Assembly: GCA_041486365.1 (NCBI GenBank) | Contig: JBGPLH010000010.1 | Location: 1 to 20,905, forward strand | Direction: 5' to 3' | DNA: 20,905 nucleotides | Origin: JBGPLH01 sp041486365 [NCBI: Thermodesulfobacteriota bacterium] | Lineage (GTDB): Bacteria > JAUYMQ01 | Shown: one piece after another, positions 9,297-20,905 of the stretch | Position numbering within the stretch: the stretch's first letter is position 1 | Layout: each line of letters opens with the position of its first letter | Made by a program: the position numbers and the translations under genes | Notes under the pieces: model-generated | Database searches by the model: none | Told to the model about the DNA's origin: nothing | Seen by the model: the letters and a program-made list of their open reading frames with translations, nothing else

Positions 9297-10322
9297 TCAC
9301 CCGTTGTCGAGGGTCCGGGCCAGCCGCTTCTCCGTCCGCTCCTTCCACGCACCCGAATGGTACGCGTAGCCCACGAGCAGCGGCATGTTGATCGTGGCCT
9401 CGCCGAAGACCATCTGCTCGCTGGCCAGATCGACCTTGCCCCAGGAGCGGGCCTCCTTGAGCGTCGAGCCCGAGAGCCCGCCGTCGCGCTCGTCGGCCAC
9501 GGTGAGCTGAATAGCGTACTTGTGCATCGGGCTGTCGTAGCCCAGGAAGTTCGCCGCGACCACCGTGTCCTGCACGAAGTTCTTGGGAACCCCGCCCGAG
9601 ATCATCAGGATCCCGGTCTCCTTCGCGTCGATCTTCAGCTTCGTCAGCTCGCGGAAGTCCTTCACCGAGTCGATGGAGAGCATCGGGCCCTTCGCCTTCC
9701 ACTGGTGGTACACGAGCCCGAATCCCGCCGAGCAGTCGCTGAAGGCCGGCACGAAGATCGGCACGTCGCGCTCGTAGCAGGCCTGCACGACCGACTCGGG
9801 GTTCTTCCCGTGCTTCACGAGGTACTCTCCCATCGCGCGGATGAACTCGCGGGAGGAGTAGGGGCGCGGCGGAAGGGCGTTGGCGATCTTCTCGGTCGTG
9901 TGGTCCACCTCGTCGAGATGGTCCTCGTCCATGTAGTGGTCGTAGATCCGGTCGATGTTCAGATCGCGGAGCTCGGTGTCGTCCACGTGGGGGGTCCCCT
10001 GGTAATGGCGGAACCCGAGCCCCTCGTAGAAATCCTGATCCACCATGAGCGCGCCGGTGGACACGATCGCGTCCACCATGTTGCACGTCACCATGTCGTA
10101 GACCACCTTCCGGAGCCCCGCACCGAAGAGCGAGCCGGCGAGCGTGAGAATCACGGTGCACTCGCGGTCCCGGAGCATCCGCTCGTAGATCTGCGCCGCC
10201 CGCGCCAGGTTGCGCGCCTGGAACGCCGCACGCCCCATGGAATCGATCAAGGGGCGCACGTCCACCGTCTTGATGTCGATCTGCTCGACCGGCACCTTCA
10301 GGTAATCCGCCTTGGTCGCCAT
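9297..10322 (-). CDS. Deoxyhypusine synthase family protein
   Basis: A 341-residue member of the DHS fold. In eukaryotes and archaea this NAD-dependent enzyme moves the aminobutyl group of spermidine onto a lysine of eIF5A/aIF5A; bacteria lack that target, and bacterial homologues are thought to act on small amines to make polyamines such as homospermidine. Visible signatures are [19 protein letters not shown] (60-78), [23 protein letters not shown] (87-109), [18 protein letters not shown] (241-258) and SWGK with Lys296, which aligns with the catalytic lysine of human DHS. ATG 10322 is the start because GGAGG lies 9 bases upstream and the family begins here; the longer open frame to 10403 runs through the leader hairpin. 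It has its own promoter and a terminator, so is monocistronic. Confidence 0.9.
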
Positions 10323-10363
10323 CGCCTGTCCTCCTCGCCGCTTGAGGAATGCCTGGAAAACCC

Positions 10364-10422
10364 AAAGCCACCCGTCGGGCCTACGGCGCTGTCGCGCCGC
10401 CATCGGGACCCGGGGTGGCTTT
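10364..10422 (-). promoter_or_regulatory. Structured 5' leader (hairpin plus T-tract) of the dhs-like gene
   Basis: On the minus strand AAAGCCACCC (10422-10413) pairs perfectly with GGGTGGCTTT (10373-10364), enclosing a nested CGGCGC/GCGCCG hairpin with a 4-base loop and a possible CGGG/CCCG helix between them. The closing helix is followed by GGGTTTT. The predicted transcription start of the promoter at 10430-10458 falls almost exactly at its first base, so it would be the 5' end of the dhs-like mRNA. It could alternatively terminate the upstream secreted-protein gene. It fits no riboswitch class I could recognise. Confidence 0.6.
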
Positions 10423-13756: not shown

Positions 13757-16012
<2,256 letters not shown>

Positions 16013-16047
16013 TCAGGTCGAGCGATCGGGATCGGCAAAGAGAACCG

Positions 16048-16108: not shown

Positions 16109-17032
16109 TCACGCCCCCAGGAAAGGCAGCACCCGGGGGATCAGCTCGATCGTGACCGGCAGGCGCCCGGGCTGCTCGCCGTCCATGTCGATCAGCGTGA
16201 CCTCCCTGGAAGAGGCCGTGACGCGACGGCCGCGGAGGACCTGGGTATTGGCGTGCTGGACGTGCGTTCCTTTATAGATGTCGCCGGCCCGGAGCAGGGT
16301 CTGCGTTCTCGAGGCGTCTCCCTGGATCACGACGTCGAAGAGGCCGTCGTCCAGGCTCGCATGCGGCGCGATCCACATGCCCGCCCCGAAGTACTGGCCG
16401 TTCGCCACGCTCACCTGCTGGATCACCCGCTCCTCGTCGAGCACGTCGTCGATCTTCAGGTGGACGGGACGGTTGCGGAAATTCAGCACGGCCATGAGGC
16501 TCGCCCACATGAAGGAGACCCGCCCGCCCAGCGCCTTGGAGGATCGGTTCACCCGGTCGTCCACGTCGCCCCCGAGACCGAAACTCGCGATGTTGAGGAA
16601 CATGTGCGAGGCCGTCGAACCGGAACGATCCACGCAGGTGAGGCGACCGACGTCGATGGGGACCGGCTTGGACTGTGCGAGCCGCGCAACCACGGCGTCC
16701 TCGTCCTTCGGGAACCCGAGGAGGCGCGCGAAATCGCCGCCCGTGCCGCCGGGGATGAGGCTCATCGCCGTCTCCGGCCTCACGGGCCGTCCGTCCTTGA
16801 AAAGGCCGTTCAGCACCTCGTTATTGGTGCCGTCACCGCCCACGGAGATCACCAGCTCCGCGCCGTCCGTGAGCGCCCTCCGGGCCAGCTCAGTCGCGTG
16901 CCGCGGCCGGGTGGTCATGTACACGCGCGCCTCGCCGAGGTGCTTCCTCACCGCGGCCTCGATCCCGGGCCACCGCTTCCCGGTCTTCCCATTGGCCGAG
17001 CGCGGATTCACGATGCAGGCGATCCGGGCCAT
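16109..17032 (-). CDS. Diacylglycerol/sphingosine-kinase-type lipid kinase (YegS family)
   Basis: ATP-dependent kinase of the DAGK catalytic family, phosphorylating a lipid hydroxyl. The 307-residue protein begins ACIVNPRSANGKTGKRWP, and has the nucleotide motif VGGDGTNNEVLNGL (GGDGT at 65-69) and LIPGGTGGDFARLLG, where the more usual Asn of GTGNDFAR is Gly, a variant also found in the family. The C-terminal half (NGQYFGAGMWIAPHASLDDGLFDVV) matches the conserved acceptor/metal region. ATG 17032 has GGGAGG close upstream. It follows the CCG-domain gene by only 29 bases, so it is the last gene of the redox operon, which hints at a glycerolipid link. The exact lipid substrate cannot be read from the sequence. 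Confidence 0.9.
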   Translation of the reverse strand: MARIACIVNPRSANGKTGKRWPGIEAAVRKHLGEARVYMTTRPRHATELARRALTDGAELVISVGGDGTNNEVLNGLFKDGRPVRPETAMSLIPGGTGGDFARLLGFPKDEDAVVARLAQSKPVPIDVGRLTCVDRSGSTASHMFLNIASFGLGGDVDDRVNRSSKALGGRVSFMWASLMAVLNFRNRPVHLKIDDVLDEERVIQQVSVANGQYFGAGMWIAPHASLDDGLFDVVIQGDASRTQTLLRAGDIYKGTHVQHANTQVLRGRRVTASSREVTLIDMDGEQPGRLPVTIELIPRVLPFLGA

Positions 17033-17061
17033 CTCCCCTCCCCGCGCGAATTTCGTGCTTC

Positions 17062-18288
17062 TCAGCGTTTGCGCCCCGCACCGGGCGCCTCAGGCGCCGT
17101 CGCCTCCGCCACGAGCGACGCCAGCGTGCGCACCGGGATCGTCCGGACCTCTCCGAGCATCGCCGCGCACTCCTCCGAGGCGGTGACGATCATCTCGAAC
17201 CCGCCTTCCACCGCCTGGTCCACCCGTGCCTGCGCCATGCGCGCCGTCGTCGCCGGGTCCACGAAGGCCAGCCCGCCGCTCCCGCCGCAGCACAGCGCGT
17301 TCTCACGGGACCAGGGGAACTCACCGGGTGGCTTCTCGAACAGCGTCGCGGCAAGCCGGCGTGGCGGGTCGTAGACGCCCGCGTGCCGGCCCAGGTGGCA
17401 GGGGTCGTGATATATCGCCCGCTGCGGGAATTTCCGTTGGATGCGCAGCCGCCCCTCCTCCATCGCACGGGCCAGCGCCGTCACGAGGTCCTCCACCCGG
17501 GGATGAAGCCCCACCCCCACGGCTGCGTACTCCCGTTCCAGGGTGCGGGCGCAGACCGCCGTGTCGCAGATCACGCGCTCGAAGCGCGAGAGCGCTTCGG
17601 CGTTCTTGCGCGCATGCGCCCTGAACTCCTCCTCGAAGCCGAGATCGAGGAGCGGCGCGCCACAGCAGCTCACCGAGGTCTCGGGCAGCGCGCATGCCTC
17701 GCCCGCGCGGGCGAGCGCAGAGGCGGCGTCGCGGGCGGCCTCGCCTGCTCGTATCTGATCTTGTCGGCCCGCGCGTCCTTCTTGGAGTCGTCCCTCGCTT
17801 TGCTCGGGACCTCCGGCGGGACCTCCGGCGCGCAGGCAGGAGACGAGAAGGGCCGAGCGCGATTGCGGATCGATGGACTCGCCGAGCGACTTCGCGAGGG
17901 CCTCCCGATCGCCGCCCGGGAACATCGATCCACTCCGCCGGAACCGCTCCGCCGCCTTCGCCACGGCTTCGGGCACCTGCGATTCCCGGACGGCCAGCGC
18001 CCGCGCGGCGCGCAGCGCGGAGGGAACGTCGTTTCCGTGCAGGCAGTACTCGCGGCAGAGGAGGCAGTTCGTGCAGTCGTAGAACGCGCGGGCGATCTCG
18101 GGCGTGAGGGCGAGATGGCCCTTGCGCACGTGGTTCGCCAGGCCCATGAGCGCCCAGGGCGTGGCCGATTCCTTCCCGGTCGCCGCCGCCACGGGGCAGC
18201 TGTGCCGGCACATCTTCGGGCAATAGGTGCACAGCTCGAGCGCCTGTTCGTGGGGCGCCAGCGCGGCTTCGGCGCCATGCTCGCTCAT
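17062..18288 (-). CDS. Iron-sulfur CCG-domain oxidoreductase subunit (GlpC/GlcF/HdrD-like)
   Basis: A 408-residue electron-transfer subunit. Two N-terminal [4Fe-4S] motifs (Cys20, 23, 27, 31 and Cys72, 75, 78, 82) are followed by two CCG domains: Cys151 with CCG at 208-210 and Cys241/Cys246, then Cys297 with CCG at 333-335 and Cys374. The layout is that of GlpC, GlcF and LutA/HdrD-type subunits that pass electrons from a flavin partner to quinone or a heterodisulfide-like acceptor. Oddities: 56 residues separate Cys151 from the first CCG, where about 31-38 is usual; the closing pair is C-X4-C; and the second domain's closing pair has Ser371 in place of its first Cys. ATG 18288 overlaps the TGA of the FAD oxidase gene in ATGA, so the two are coupled. 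Confidence 0.88.
   Translation of the reverse strand: MSEHGAEAALAPHEQALELCTYCPKMCRHSCPVAAATGKESATPWALMGLANHVRKGHLALTPEIARAFYDCTNCLLCREYCLHGNDVPSALRAARALAVRESQVPEAVAKAAERFRRSGSMFPGGDREALAKSLGESIDPQSRSALLVSCLRAGGPAGGPEQSEGRLQEGRAGRQDQIRAGEAARDAASALARAGEACALPETSVSCCGAPLLDLGFEEEFRAHARKNAEALSRFERVICDTAVCARTLEREYAAVGVGLHPRVEDLVTALARAMEEGRLRIQRKFPQRAIYHDPCHLGRHAGVYDPPRRLAATLFEKPPGEFPWSRENALCCGGSGGLAFVDPATTARMAQARVDQAVEGGFEMIVTASEECAAMLGEVRTIPVRTLASLVAEATAPEAPGAGRKR
17790..17829. repeat. Palindrome plus tandem 12-bp repeat inside the CCG-domain gene
   Basis: A 21-base imperfect palindrome with GTCCC/GGGAC ends (17790-17810) overlaps two exact tandem copies of GGGACCTCCGGC (17806-17817, 17818-17829). 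It falls in frame at about residues 154-167 of the Fe-S protein, within a hydrophilic stretch that lengthens the first CCG domain by roughly 20 residues. This looks like a small repeat element inserted and tolerated in a coding region. Confidence 0.6.
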
Positions 18289-19700
18289 GGGACCAGCTTT
18301 CCCGGGTTCAGGATGTTGTTCGGATCGAGCGCGCGCTTCACCGCCCCGTACATCGCGAGGAGCGGCCCGTGCTCGTCCTTCATCCAGGGCGCCTTGAGGA
18401 GCCCGACGCCGTGATGGTGCGTGATCGTGGCGCCCATCTTGACGCAGGCGTTCATCGCGTCGTTCCACACCGCCCGGTAGGTCTCGATGTCGCCCTCCGC
18501 TCCCGACGGACCGACGAAGGTGAAGTAGATCGATCCGCCCTCGGGGTAGACGTGGCTGAAATGGGCGAGGCAGGTCATGCGCTTGCCGATCGCCGCGCGC
18601 ATGGCGTCGTAGAGGCGCCCGAGGCTCGACCAGGTGGTCGCCACCTCGATCGTGTCCACCATCATGCCGCCGTGGTAGATGAAGCTCTGCTTGTAGGAGA
18701 TGTCGTAGCGGTGCTTCCACCAGTGCTCGCCCGGACCCGGACCGAGCGCTTCGCCTCCCGACTCGCGGCAGATCCCGTCGGCCATGTCGGCCTTCACGTC
18801 GCACAGCCCCGCCACGTCCTCGAAAATCAGGACGAGCAGGCATCCGGTGGCGTCGAAGCCGAGCGCCGAGAGCGAGATCGCCGTGTCCGTCTCGTCGTAC
18901 AGGCGCACCGCGGCGGGGTCGAGCCCCTTCCGCATGATCTTCCGGATCGTCTCGAGCCCCGCGGGAACATCCTTGTAGACGTACCCGGCGAAGCGCCGCG
19001 CCTCGGGGAGCGGCCTCACGCGCGCGGTGGCCGCGGTGATCACGGCGAGCGTCCCCTCGCTCCCCACGAGGAGCTGGTCCAGGCGCGGGCCTGCCGCCGT
19101 GCGCGGCGAGACCTTCGACGCGAAGACCGTCCCGTCGGGGAGCACGCCCTCGATCCCCATCACCATGTCCTCGATCTTCCCGTATTTGGTCGAGAGCTGC
19201 CCCGCGCTGCGCGTGGCGATCCAGCCGCCGAAGGTCGAACAGTAGATGGACGACGGGAAGTGCCCCATCGTGTAGCCGCGCCCGTTCAGCCACTCCTCCA
19301 GGTGCTGACCGATGATCCCCGCCTCGGCCGTCACGAGCAACGACGCCTCGTCGAGGTGCCGGACGCGCTTCATGCGCTTGAGATCCAGGATCACGCCGCC
19401 CCGATGGGCGAGCGTGCCGCCGCACACCCCCGAGCCGGCGCCCATGGGGATCACCGGGAAGCGGCGCTCGTTAGCGAGCTGGAGCAGCGCGACGATCTCG
19501 CCCAGCGACTCGGGCCATACGATGGCGTCGGGCGGATGGGGGAAGACGCCCTGGCGCGCCCAGAACTGCCCCATGGGCCAGCAGTCCCGGGCGTAGGCGA
19601 TGCGATCGGGAACGGTGGCGGAGAGGCGATCGGCCGGGAAGATCGTCGCCAGCGCTTCGGCGAGCGCGGGATCCGCGGGACGGACGATCTCCGGTGGCAT
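18285..19700 (-). CDS. FAD-linked oxidase of the alkyl-DHAP synthase/GlcD family
   Basis: A 471-residue flavoprotein of the vanillyl-alcohol-oxidase superfamily. The PCMH FAD domain spans about 59-225: VWPESLGEIVALLQLANE, VIPMGAGSGVCGG (83-95), the GHFPSSIYCSTFGGWIATRSAG stretch from 146, STKYGKIEDMVMG (170-182) and LLVGSEGTLAVIT. The C-terminal cap includes ITHHHGVGLLK (His428-430), and it ends NNILNPGKLVP. The STFGGWIATRSAG, GKIED and HHHGVG motifs are those of alkylglycerone-phosphate (ether-lipid) synthase rather than of glycolate oxidase. However, its coupling to iron-sulfur subunits is typical of GlcD-like dehydrogenases. ATG 19700 shares a base with the preceding TGA (TGATG). Substrate is unresolved: acyl-DHAP or a 2-hydroxyacid are the main options. 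Confidence 0.88.
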   Translation of the reverse strand: MPPEIVRPADPALAEALATIFPADRLSATVPDRIAYARDCWPMGQFWARQGVFPHPPDAIVWPESLGEIVALLQLANERRFPVIPMGAGSGVCGGTLAHRGGVILDLKRMKRVRHLDEASLLVTAEAGIIGQHLEEWLNGRGYTMGHFPSSIYCSTFGGWIATRSAGQLSTKYGKIEDMVMGIEGVLPDGTVFASKVSPRTAAGPRLDQLLVGSEGTLAVITAATARVRPLPEARRFAGYVYKDVPAGLETIRKIMRKGLDPAAVRLYDETDTAISLSALGFDATGCLLVLIFEDVAGLCDVKADMADGICRESGGEALGPGPGEHWWKHRYDISYKQSFIYHGGMMVDTIEVATTWSSLGRLYDAMRAAIGKRMTCLAHFSHVYPEGGSIYFTFVGPSGAEGDIETYRAVWNDAMNACVKMGATITHHHGVGLLKAPWMKDEHGPLLAMYGAVKRALDPNNILNPGKLVP

Positions 19701-20149
19701 CAGATCGACCCCTCTTCCGCCATCTTGTCCGCCATGAACCGCACCATCCGCCTGAGCGGCGTGCCGGTGGGGCAGACCTCCTCGCACAGGCCGCAGGACG
19801 CGCACTGGCGCACGATGTCGCGGGCGGCCCAGAACTCCGGGATCGATCGGGCGTAGGAGACCGCCAGTGCCCGCGGGTCAAGCGGGGCGTCGGCGGCGAC
19901 CCTCCCCGCCGGGCGCGTGAGAGCGCACTCGGAGGTGCACAGGCCGCAGGACACGCAGGCCTGAAAACCGGGGAAGATCGCGCGCTCCTCCGGTGTCAGC
20001 GGGAGGATGTGATCCTCCCGGTAGTTCCGCAGGAACTTGTCGAGCCCGTTCTCCACCGGCTTGCGCCGCCATCCGAGGATCCGGCCGATGTGATGGCCGA
20101 AGTAGAACCGCCCCATGAACGCGTAGGTGGCGAGCTTCTTGCGGTTCAC
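19700..20149 (-). CDS. Small two-cluster [4Fe-4S] protein (HdrC-like)
   Basis: A 149-residue soluble protein with two complete CxxCxxCxxxC motifs: Cys65, 68, 71, 75 (CVSCGLCTSEC) and Cys116, 119, 122, 126 (CASCGLCEEVCP), the arrangement of HdrC and of the N-terminal part of GlpC-like proteins. The first 60 residues are basic and aromatic (YAFMGRFYFGHHIGRILGWRR) without a transmembrane helix and may dock on a membrane partner. The start is GTG 20149, with GGGAGGACGAGGA just upstream; the preceding glpB-like gene ends 30 bases before. It is coupled to the FAD oxidase gene by TGATG. Role as an electron wire among GlpB-like, FAD oxidase and CCG subunits is inferred. Confidence 0.87.
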   Translation of the reverse strand: MNRKKLATYAFMGRFYFGHHIGRILGWRRKPVENGLDKFLRNYREDHILPLTPEERAIFPGFQACVSCGLCTSECALTRPAGRVAADAPLDPRALAVSYARSIPEFWAARDIVRQCASCGLCEEVCPTGTPLRRMVRFMADKMAEEGSI

Positions 20150-20179
20150 GTCCTCGTCCTCCCGAACTCTGGCCCCGCG

Positions 20180-20905
20180 TCAGGCCGACGCCGCGCGCTC
20201 GCCCGCGGCAAAGCCGGTGAGCAGATCCACCCCGGGCCCCGTTCCATCCAGCGCCAGGTCGTAGCCGCCGAGGATCGTCCCGGCGGCGATGAGGTTCTCG
20301 AAGGCCGCGCGCCCGTCCGTGCCCAGCGGCCGCAGGTCCGAGCCCGCCCGGATCCCGGCGTCGAAGAGCGGCTGGCGCGTGAAGTAGCCGGGCCTGAGCA
20401 GGCTGAACACCGCGCGGTCGCCCAGGGGCTTCGCGCGGTGGAACACGGGGAGGCCGAAGATCGCCTCCCGCACCGTGACGCGTCCCGTGAGGCCGCCGCC
20501 CGCGAAGCGCCCCGTGGCGAGCACGAACCGCTCCGCCCGGATCTTCACCGCGCCCGCGTCGTCCTCTCCCTCGAGGGCCAGGATCCTCCGCCCCGAAATC
20601 TCGGCGCCCGTCACGCGCGCGGAAACGAGCCGCACGCGCGAGGAAGCCAGCGCCCGGTCCAGCGCCTTCTGCATCCGGAGTCCGTGGATCGCATGCGGGG
20701 GCGGAACGAGCGGCTCGGAAACCGGGATCCCCAGGCGCCGCGCGAGGAGCTCGAGGACCTCCGCATGCCGCTCGAGCCCGAGCACCGGGGCGACGATCAC
20801 GTGGGTGAAGGACGGACCGGAGATGGCGCGGGCCACTTCCTCCGCGAAGGCCTCCCGCCGCTCGGCGTCGTCCAGATCGCGCGCGACTTCCGCCGGAAGG
20901 ATCCC
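20180..20905 (-). CDS. glpB: Anaerobic glycerol-3-phosphate dehydrogenase subunit B-like protein (C-terminal part; 5' end off window)
   Basis: The frame stays open to the right edge, giving 241 residues of a protein whose family is about 420 long. Segments typical of GlpB are PPHAIHGLRMQKALDRAL, the flavin-fold region with RFVLATGRFAGGGL, TVREAIFGLPVFH, and the C-terminal FENLIAAGTILGGYD, which closely parallels the end of E. coli GlpB. In E. coli GlpB joins GlpA (FAD) and GlpC (Fe-S) to oxidise glycerol-3-phosphate to DHAP at the membrane. A glpA gene would be expected just beyond the edge. It is the first visible gene of the redox operon, 30 bases before the small Fe-S protein gene. Confidence 0.85.
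   Translation of the reverse strand, partial: GILPAEVARDLDDAERREAFAEEVARAISGPSFTHVIVAPVLGLERHAEVLELLARRLGIPVSEPLVPPPHAIHGLRMQKALDRALASSRVRLVSARVTGAEISGRRILALEGEDDAGAVKIRAERFVLATGRFAGGGLTGRVTVREAIFGLPVFHRAKPLGDRAVFSLLRPGYFTRQPLFDAGIRAGSDLRPLGTDGRAAFENLIAAGTILGGYDLALDGTGPGVDLLTGFAAGERAASA

What the first reader, a model, noticed from the sequence alone, without database searches (positions are those of the whole stretch)
16109..20905. Compact operon joining GlpB-like, two Fe-S proteins, an alkyl-DHAP-synthase-like flavoprotein and a lipid kinase
Five genes are packed with overlaps (TGATG, ATGA) or gaps of about 30 bases. The sequence shows a GlpB C-terminus, an HdrC-like protein, an FAD oxidase with the ether-lipid-synthase motifs STFGGWIATRSAG and HHHGVG, a CCG Fe-S protein and a YegS-type kinase. 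Known: GlpABC makes DHAP from glycerol-3-phosphate, and alkyl-DHAP synthase uses acyl-DHAP to start ether lipids. Inference: this may be a redox-coupled glycerol-phosphate/ether-lipid module, or a five-part dehydrogenase in which the AGPS-like protein has been recruited to an electron-transfer chain. I know of no described system with this exact composition.
Basis: partly seen in the sequence, partly recalled or inferred. Interest (0 to 1): 0.62.

Follow-up and report, generated by a model that had tools for sequence, protein, structure and literature searches.

The report
GlpABC operon with AGPS-like redox pair
Genes for the anaerobic glycerol-3-phosphate dehydrogenase sit in one tight operon, found in Asgard archaea and some bacteria, with a relative of the eukaryotic ether-lipid enzyme AGPS that here has an iron-sulfur partner, so it probably moves electrons rather than builds ether lipids.

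Summary
Five minus-strand genes (20905 to 16109) encode a GlpB C-terminus, a short two-cluster Fe-S protein, an AGPS-family flavoprotein, a CCG-domain Fe-S protein and a YegS lipid kinase, joined by 1- and 4-base overlaps and 29-30-base gaps. A 75%-identical relative has glpA directly before glpB. The grouping is not accidental: 47 of 59 Asgard glpB loci continue GlpA-GlpB-GlpC-AGPS-like, and 5 of 13 glpB loci seen in the phylum of L043 have a window-like layout. The flavoprotein has the AGPS fold and most of its active-site residues, but no arginine at the guinea-pig Arg515 position (0 of 79 relatives), and it usually lies beside an Fe-S/CCG-type gene (67 of 81 loci). Two fusions tie parts together. 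Best reading: a redox subunit sharing a CCG relay with GlpABC in breakdown of glycerol-phosphate units. Ether-lipid synthesis is not supported; a lipid-derived substrate is not excluded. The substrate is unknown, and many relatives carry the flavoprotein without GlpABC. The listings show no description of this composition.

The parts
20180..20905 (-). GlpB-like subunit, C-terminal 241 residues, cut by the window edge
   Evidence: NCBIfam GlpB models, best E 3e-35; 56% identical to full GlpB of L001
19700..20149 (-). short GlpC/HdrC-like protein: two 4Fe-4S motifs, no CCG domain
   Evidence: Pfam Fer4_8 E 1e-10, no CCG; same short form in L001, L032, L043, L184, L186, L187
18285..19700 (-). AGPS-family FAD protein (HHHGVG, Tyr578/Arg419 equivalents kept, Arg515 equivalent is Gln)
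   Evidence: model pLDDT 87.4, Foldseek best hits AGPS
17062..18288 (-). Fe-S protein with Fer4_8 and CCG domains, presumed electron partner of the flavoprotein; carries a short insert in its first CCG half
16109..17032 (-). YegS/Rv2252/BmrU family lipid kinase
   Evidence: TIGR00147 149.2 bits over cut-off 118.65; DAGK_cat and YegS_C
14749..16038 (-). isocitrate-dehydrogenase-like gene 70 bases after YegS; may be co-transcribed but not part of the unit
   Evidence: 70-base gap; 67% identical to the PF00180 protein that follows YegS in L043; the window protein itself was not scanned

Best explanation
A multi-subunit flavin/Fe-S dehydrogenase of glycerol-phosphate breakdown. GlpA (off the window edge) oxidises glycerol-3-phosphate to DHAP; its electrons pass through GlpB and the 4Fe-4S protein. 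The AGPS-like flavoprotein is a second dehydrogenase that oxidises a related polyol-phosphate or glycerol-phosphate unit and feeds the same CCG electron relay to the membrane quinone pool. Kinases supply the phosphorylated substrate: FGGY sugar/glycerol kinases in archaea, a YegS lipid kinase in this bacterial branch. Shown: gene content, conserved order, domain make-up, residue pattern, predicted fold, fusions. Inferred: that the AGPS-like protein turns over as a redox enzyme, that it shares the relay with GlpA, the quinone acceptor, and the direction (catabolic). Not known: its substrate. My best guesses, in order, are the other glycerol-phosphate enantiomer (G1P), another polyol phosphate, or an alkyl-glycerol phosphate.
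For: Linkage: 47 of 59 Asgard glpB loci run on into AGPS-like (5 others end at a contig edge, 7 do not); 5 of 13 glpB loci seen in the phylum of L043 (L043, L184-L187); also L004, L001 and the window. Partner: a CCG-type gene by my HMM within 6 kb on the same strand in 67 of 81 loci (the model does not separate GlpC from the extra CCG protein). Complementary CCG loss: short protein without CCG plus a separate CCG gene (window, L001/L002, L043, L184, L186, L187), or full GlpC with two CCG stretches and no separate gene (L007, L008/L119, L010, L035). Fusions: CCG-CCG-DAO-BFD in L021 next to AGPS-like; Fer4_8 plus YegS kinase in L040 next to AGPS-like. Three unlike G3P-dehydrogenase-type neighbours: GlpABC; a DAO/BFD protein with Pyr_redox and DUF1667 (L013 type, under its G3P-oxidase cut-off); GlpD-like (L112, L114 by Pfam, Streptomyces and Microbacterium by annotation). 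FGGY kinase in 27 of 81 loci. No Arg at position 515 in 79 of 79 relatives, while none of 5 Arg-bearing homologs (L112, L114, L116, L194, L195) shows a CCG-type gene in the stretch seen.
Against: No biochemistry is known to me for any of these proteins. 79 of 132 Asgard genomes with the flavoprotein (E <= 1e-60) have no GlpB (E <= 1e-12), so GlpABC is not a fixed partner. Lack of Arg515 does not track the Fe-S partner: one clade of 12 myxobacterial or 'delta' loci has neither Arg nor a CCG-type gene, nor have L100, L111, L113, L115. In 35 of 79 the position is an alignment gap. Of the 67 CCG-type partners, ten (PVC group) have no CCG motif, and that of L017 has Fer4_8 only. A CCG-type gene shows in only 1 of 8 plasmid contexts. 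Structure comparison does not separate AGPS from D-lactate dehydrogenase: Z 38.4 (rmsd 2.3) against 38.8 (rmsd 2.8). Tyr578, Arg419 and His617 equivalents are kept in 79 of 79, so synthase-like chemistry cannot be ruled out. The lipid kinase and its fusion to the Fe-S part point to lipids rather than free glycerol. L021 and L040 are single MAG contigs. On the GlpB tree the AGPS link needs 6 gains or losses. The 59 Asgard genomes are related, so not independent.
Confidence: 0.5

Rival explanations
1. Ether-lipid synthesis module: GlpABC supplies DHAP, the AGPS-like protein forms the ether bond on acyl-DHAP, YegS phosphorylates the lipid product; the Fe-S proteins serve GlpA only.
For: Closest solved relatives are AGPS; Thr309, Arg419, Tyr578 and HHH positions kept in the window; a Streptomyces plasmid has a G3P dehydrogenase gene, a regulator, an AGPS-like gene with the Arg and a YegS kinase side by side; YegS in 17 of 81 loci.
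Against: The 515 position is Gln in the window and never Arg in 79 relatives; 57 of the 67 loci with a CCG-type gene show no GlpB within 6 kb (some because the contig ends), so the Fe-S partner goes with the flavoprotein rather than with GlpA; no acyl-reductase or acyl-DHAP transferase among the neighbour proteins that I scanned, though the rest of the window was not scanned; present in Asgard and Thermoplasmatota MAGs, which build ethers by unrelated enzymes (recalled).
Confidence: 0.16
2. Anaerobic ether-lipid breakdown: kinase makes alkyl-glycerol-phosphate, GlpABC-type complex oxidises it to alkyl-DHAP, the AGPS-like protein runs AGPS chemistry backwards or oxidatively to release fatty alcohol and a triose phosphate, with electrons going to CCG.
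For: Explains AGPS ancestry, the lipid kinase, the Fe-S partner and the fusion of Fe-S with YegS together; an alpha/beta hydrolase lies within three genes in L050, L055 and L074.
Against: Five of eight cultured contexts read are sugar or polyol operons, four of them with a LacI and one with a DeoR/GlpR regulator; PVC relatives lie in sugar-isomerase/aldolase clusters (L076 scanned; others by shared families); no direct evidence of a lipid substrate.
Confidence: 0.13
3. A GlcDF/lactate-type hydroxy-acid dehydrogenase that merely lies beside glp genes.
For: GlcD model TIGR00387 scores 193 bits; a second FAD_binding_4 protein between flavoprotein and CCG in L025 and L046, as in GlcDEF; Z tie with D-lactate dehydrogenase; the flavoprotein is common without GlpB.
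Against: GlcD and GlcF cut-offs missed by far; the window's branch has HHHGVG where GlcD-type paralogs of the same genomes have GEH or AEH; in the loci I read the neighbours are Glp, FGGY or sugar genes, not glycolate or lactate genes.
Confidence: 0.15

Closest known systems
Alkylglycerone (alkyl-DHAP) phosphate synthase, AGPS
   Same: Fold (TM-score 0.85-0.90 by query length against mammalian chains), FAD_binding_4 plus FAD-oxidase_C, HHHGVG, Tyr578, Arg419 and Thr309 equivalents
   Different: No Arg515 equivalent; aligned part starts at about AGPS residue 148-155, so the N-terminal part is absent; beside a CCG Fe-S gene, in a glp operon
GlpABC anaerobic glycerol-3-phosphate dehydrogenase (E. 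coli)
   Same: GlpA-GlpB order (in L001), GlpB family, two-cluster Fe-S part of GlpC
   Different: E. coli glpABC is followed by rpnE, no AGPS-like gene; E. coli GlpC has two CCG motifs, the window's short protein has none
GlcDEF glycolate oxidase
   Same: FAD protein plus CCG Fe-S protein, with a second FAD_binding_4 protein between them in some relatives
   Different: Different FAD subfamily (HHH instead of GEH), curated cut-offs not reached, no glycolate context seen
Streptomyces G3P dehydrogenase - TetR - FAD oxidoreductase - YegS group (and, recalled, M. tuberculosis Rv2249c-Rv2252)
   Same: G3P dehydrogenase, AGPS-like protein and YegS kinase together
   Different: GlpD-type on the other strand instead of GlpABC, Arg515 kept, no Fe-S genes beside it

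Membership tests
AGPS | FAD_binding_4 and FAD-oxidase_C domains with HHHGVG and the Tyr578, Arg419 equivalents | tested here: met
AGPS | Arg515 equivalent in the active site (role recalled, not from a call) | tested here: not met
   Gln in the window; Arg in 0 of 79 relatives (35 of them a gap there); Arg in 2uuu, 4bby, L112, L114, L116
AGPS | Forms alkyl-DHAP without net redox change | not testable with these tools
   needs enzyme assay
GlpABC | GlpA and GlpB subunits together | tested here: inconclusive
   GlpB fragment in the window under cut-off; GlpA present in the 75% relative L001, under its cut-off; window ends before glpA
GlpABC | GlpC with 4Fe-4S motifs and two CCG domains | tested here: not met
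   window protein has Fer4-type hits only; CCG lies in a separate gene
GlcDEF glycolate oxidase | GlcD and GlcF reach curated model cut-offs | tested here: not met
   GlcD 193.3 of 567.9 bits; GlcF 48.9 of 333 bits
YegS/Rv2252/BmrU lipid kinase | TIGR00147 over cut-off, DAGK_cat and YegS_C domains | tested here: met
   149.2 of 118.65 bits

The most novel reading that the evidence does not exclude
GlpABC and the AGPS-like/CCG pair are one complex with two active sites of opposite stereochemistry on a shared electron relay, linking sn-glycerol-3-phosphate, DHAP and sn-glycerol-1-phosphate. In Asgard archaea it would give a way to burn, or by net redox-neutral exchange to make, the archaeal lipid backbone G1P; eukaryotic AGPS, which falls among these mostly Fe-S-partnered proteins on my quick tree (rooting and long branches unsure), would descend from such a redox enzyme.
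Probability: 0.1. Interest if true: 0.85.

Novelty: new variant of a known kind. Interest (0 to 1): 0.55.

Why it matters
If right, a flavoprotein family known for building ether lipids is used, in many Asgard archaea and some bacterial groups, as a redox subunit tied to glycerol-3-phosphate dehydrogenase. It would correct likely misannotation (ether-lipid synthase or glycolate oxidase), add a partner to the Asgard GlpABC recently described (PMC11291895, passages read, no mention of such a protein in them), and make the substrate question testable. How G1P is recycled is called unexplored in the start of the abstract of PMC12718374 (search listing).

Tried and rejected
G1P dehydrogenase test. 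If the module made G1P, carriers should lack EgsA. Of 227 Asgard genomes, AGPS-like was found in 20 of 79 with a strong EgsA hit, 41 of 46 with a middling hit and 71 of 102 with weak or none (the classes are my own E-value cuts at 1e-70 and 1e-50). [quoted passage not shown] I do not count it as evidence. PF13685 proved too broad: it hits 12 of 14 control genomes.

Is Arg515 a clean marker of lipid synthesis or of the lack of an Fe-S partner? No. Paralogs L100, L111, L113 and L115 and the 12-locus clade L026, L038, L039, L041, L045, L048, L049, L051, L053, L057, L058, L059 lack it without a CCG-type gene. I had no bacterial AGPS of proven function to compare: MXAN_1676 (PMC9131029, passages read) was not among my sequences. 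Of the 4 papers listed none pairs Arg515 with AGPS.

Origin of eukaryotic AGPS: the quick tree puts 2uuu and 4bby with paralogs among these proteins, but they are the longest branches and the program warns of false joins; kept as a lead only.

Other neighbours scanned by Pfam (methyltransferase, diphthamide synthase, CNNM, SAICAR synthetase, PrsW, TrmO) show no common theme. Radical SAM/B12 proteins in L011 and L035 were not followed. Of nine other window proteins compared with the survey ORFs, isocitrate dehydrogenase recurs only in L043, and the KorB-like one in L043 and L023. The phylum of L001's genome holds only that one genome, so no wider survey of the window's own group was possible; in the phylum of L004, 1 of 7 genomes has GlpB.

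Limits: all 80 loci come from one scan seeded with the window protein; gene calls are mechanical ORFs. For Asgard I fetched the best glpB place of 59 of the 61 genomes with a hit; G095 and G172 and second, weaker places were not fetched. L001 and L002 are contig ends 96% identical over 480 bases, read as strain variants in one bin, not one contig. P0001 begins one codon before the ATG.
Full report
What is there. Pfam and NCBIfam identify a GlpB C-terminal fragment, a two-cluster ferredoxin-type protein, an FAD_binding_4/FAD-oxidase_C protein, a Fer4_8 plus CCG protein and a YegS/Rv2252/BmrU lipid kinase (GlpB by NCBIfam only). The junctions are TGATG and ATGA overlaps and gaps of 30 and 29 bases. 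An isocitrate-dehydrogenase-like gene follows YegS after 70 bases; malate dehydrogenase, fumarase, succinyl-CoA synthetase and 2-oxoacid:ferredoxin oxidoreductase genes seem to lie beyond it. The names of those beyond isocitrate dehydrogenase are my reading of the translations, not a family search.

Relatives. One scan of the species-genome collection with the flavoprotein kept the best 80 of 287 loci. The closest, L001, is a MAG contig labelled Deltaproteobacteria; it carries GlpA, GlpB (56% identical), the short Fe-S protein (63%) and the flavoprotein (75%) up to the contig end. L002, a contig of the same bin, overlaps it at 96% over 480 bases and continues with the CCG gene (53%), but then with an AAA-domain gene instead of YegS. 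So the missing upstream gene is very probably glpA.

Conservation. In the 81 loci (80 plus window) the HMM survey finds on the same strand within 6 kb: CCG-type gene 67, FGGY kinase 27, YegS 17, GlpA-type 15, a second AGPS-model hit 15, GlpB 10. The CCG model does not separate GlpC from the extra CCG protein, and its 67 include ten PVC partners without a CCG motif. Of the 14 loci without a hit, L021 and L040 have the partner fused to another gene; the other 12 form one myxobacterial/'delta' clade. GlpB was then searched in whole genomes. Of 227 genomes in the phylum of Jordarchaeum (an Asgard MAG), 61 have GlpB. I fetched the best place of 59 of them: 47 run on into the AGPS-like gene, 37 as GlpC-AGPS-CCG and 10 as GlpC-AGPS; 5 end at a contig edge; 7 do not (in one of these, L126, an AGPS-CCG pair lies nearby on the other strand). 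GlpA precedes in 57 of 59 and an FGGY kinase in 43 of 59. Conversely, of 132 of the 227 genomes with the flavoprotein at E <= 1e-60, only 53 also have GlpB, so the flavoprotein does not depend on GlpABC. In the phylum of L043, 14 of 46 genomes have GlpB. Of the 13 loci seen (L043 and the 12 fetched), 5 show GlpA-GlpB-(short Fe-S)-AGPS-second AGPS-model hit-CCG, with YegS in 4 of these; in L185 no short Fe-S gene was called. The other 8 do not. The second protein has an FAD_binding_4 domain in L025 and L046, but that of L043 has no Pfam hit. E. coli glpABC has no such neighbour. On a tree of 53 GlpB sequences the AGPS link needs 6 changes, against a mean of 13.8 in shuffles: clustered, but gained or lost several times.

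A shared electron relay. E. coli GlpC has two CCG motifs. In the window, L001, L043, L184, L186 and L187 the protein after GlpB keeps the 4Fe-4S motifs but has no CCG domain, and a separate CCG gene follows the flavoprotein (L002 for L001's bin). In L007, L008/L119, L010 and L035 the reverse holds: full GlpC with two CCG stretches and no separate gene. Of the 47 Asgard loci, 37 have both. In the loci with GlpB next to an AGPS-like gene I found none without a CCG-bearing gene, except L001, whose contig ends. Two fusions add physical links: in L021 the CCG protein is one chain with a DAO/BFD dehydrogenase, and in L040 a Fer4_8 protein is one chain with a YegS kinase. In Thermoplasmatota and Chloroflexota MAGs the AGPS-CCG pair lies beside another G3P-dehydrogenase type, in most with Pyr_redox and DUF1667 genes. 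PMC11962113 (passages read) describes a Thermococcus group of G3P dehydrogenase, NADH oxidase and a molybdopterin-oxidoreductase-named protein; that DUF1667 is the latter is my inference. In other family members the neighbour is GlpD-like. A recurring tie to unlike G3P dehydrogenases is hard to explain by chance.

What the flavoprotein is. The AlphaFold2 model (39 sequences, mean pLDDT 87.4) matches AGPS best by Foldseek (E 7.5e-39), while VIA-align gives a tie between D-lactate dehydrogenase (Z 38.8, rmsd 2.8, 443 residues) and AGPS (Z 38.4, rmsd 2.3, 459 residues). Aligned to guinea-pig AGPS, 79 of 79 relatives keep Arg419, Tyr578 and His617, 77 keep His616, 58 keep His615, and none has Arg at 515 (Gln 25, Met 8, gap 35, others 11). 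The window has Gln there. Arg is present in 2uuu, 4bby and paralogs L112, L114 and L116, the last from the genome of L001, which thus may hold a separate AGPS; none of these three, nor the Arg-bearing L194 and L195, shows a CCG-type gene in the stretch seen. But several homologs lack both Arg and a CCG-type gene, so the residue alone does not mark the redox form. GlcD-type paralogs of the same genomes have GEH or AEH in place of HHH. The quick tree joins AGPS and the Arg-bearing paralogs, together with Arg-less L100, L111, L113 and L115, in one group among these proteins, with long-branch warnings.

Substrate clues. Cultured relatives found on plasmids (206 records; 8 contexts read) lie in operons with a LacI regulator, a xylulokinase, a UgpC-type ABC transporter and an alcohol or glycerol dehydrogenase (Roseibium, Paracoccus, Shinella), beside xylB, a CCG-type gene and LacI (Mesorhizobium), beside PdxA and a four-carbon acid sugar kinase (Methylobacterium), beside glpK and a G3P dehydrogenase gene (Microbacterium), or between a G3P dehydrogenase gene and YegS (Streptomyces); one Mycobacterium context shows none of these. 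PVC-group relatives lie in clusters with KduI, PfkB, FGGY kinase, isomerase and aldolase genes (L076 scanned; others share the families). This points to phosphorylated polyols or sugars, with a possible lipid branch marked by YegS.

Mechanism proposed. Kinase, then flavoprotein oxidation, then Fe-S/CCG relay to quinone, with GlpA and the AGPS-like protein as parallel entry points. Domain content, order, residue pattern and fusions are shown; redox turnover, relay sharing, acceptor and direction are inferred; the substrate is unknown.

Literature. Five searches bear on novelty: AGPS with archaea or G3P dehydrogenase (25 of 326 rows listed), ether lipid with Asgard and glpA (20 of 41), Asgard with glycolate oxidase and G3P dehydrogenase (12 of 86), AGPS with Asgard (10 of 10) and AGPS names with glpABC, glpB, glpC (15 of 15). 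No listed row describes this combination; all 15 papers hold neither AGPS term. PMC11291895 (passages read) reports GlpABC in Atabeyarchaeia and Freyarchaeia and predicts anaerobic growth on glycerol; FAD-linked, HdrC and GlcD do not occur in it. The library lacks most subscription papers, so absence there is weak evidence of novelty.

Verdict. A real operon, conserved between Asgard archaea and some bacterial groups and undescribed as far as I could search, in which an AGPS relative most likely works as an Fe-S-coupled dehydrogenase with GlpABC. The ether-lipid synthesis idea is not supported for this protein; a lipid-derived substrate remains possible.

Noticed in passing
window 17700-17830 (CCG protein residues about 157-178): The window's CCG protein carries an insert of about 20 residues in its first CCG half, with a 12-base tandem repeat (17805-17828); it is absent from L002 and the other 5 relatives aligned.
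   Followed up: partly
L040 11301-13118: One chain with a Fer4_8 domain and a YegS-type lipid kinase, next to the AGPS-like gene in a Bdellovibrionales MAG.
   Followed up: yes
L021 4961-7774: One chain with Fer4_8, two CCG stretches, a weak BON hit and a DAO/BFD dehydrogenase, next to the AGPS-like gene in a Syntrophomonadaceae MAG.
   Followed up: yes
L112 4466-8436 and L114 36-3787: AGPS-like paralogs with the Arg515 equivalent but HQH, overlapping a GlpD-like (DAO, DAO_C) gene, in myxobacterial MAGs G001 and G004.
   Followed up: partly
L054 and L060-L080 except L074: A branch with Glu (19) or Asp (2) in place of the first His of HHHG; in ten of its loci the partner gene (family F12) has no CCG motif, and the one scanned has no Pfam hit; sugar-catabolic clusters.
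   Followed up: partly
window 9297-10403: A deoxyhypusine-synthase-like gene (name recalled from the translation, not searched by family) near bacterial TCA-type genes.
   Followed up: no
L011 6604-8253 and L035 3302-4720: B12-binding radical SAM proteins lie two genes before (L011) or directly after (L035) the AGPS-like gene.
   Followed up: no
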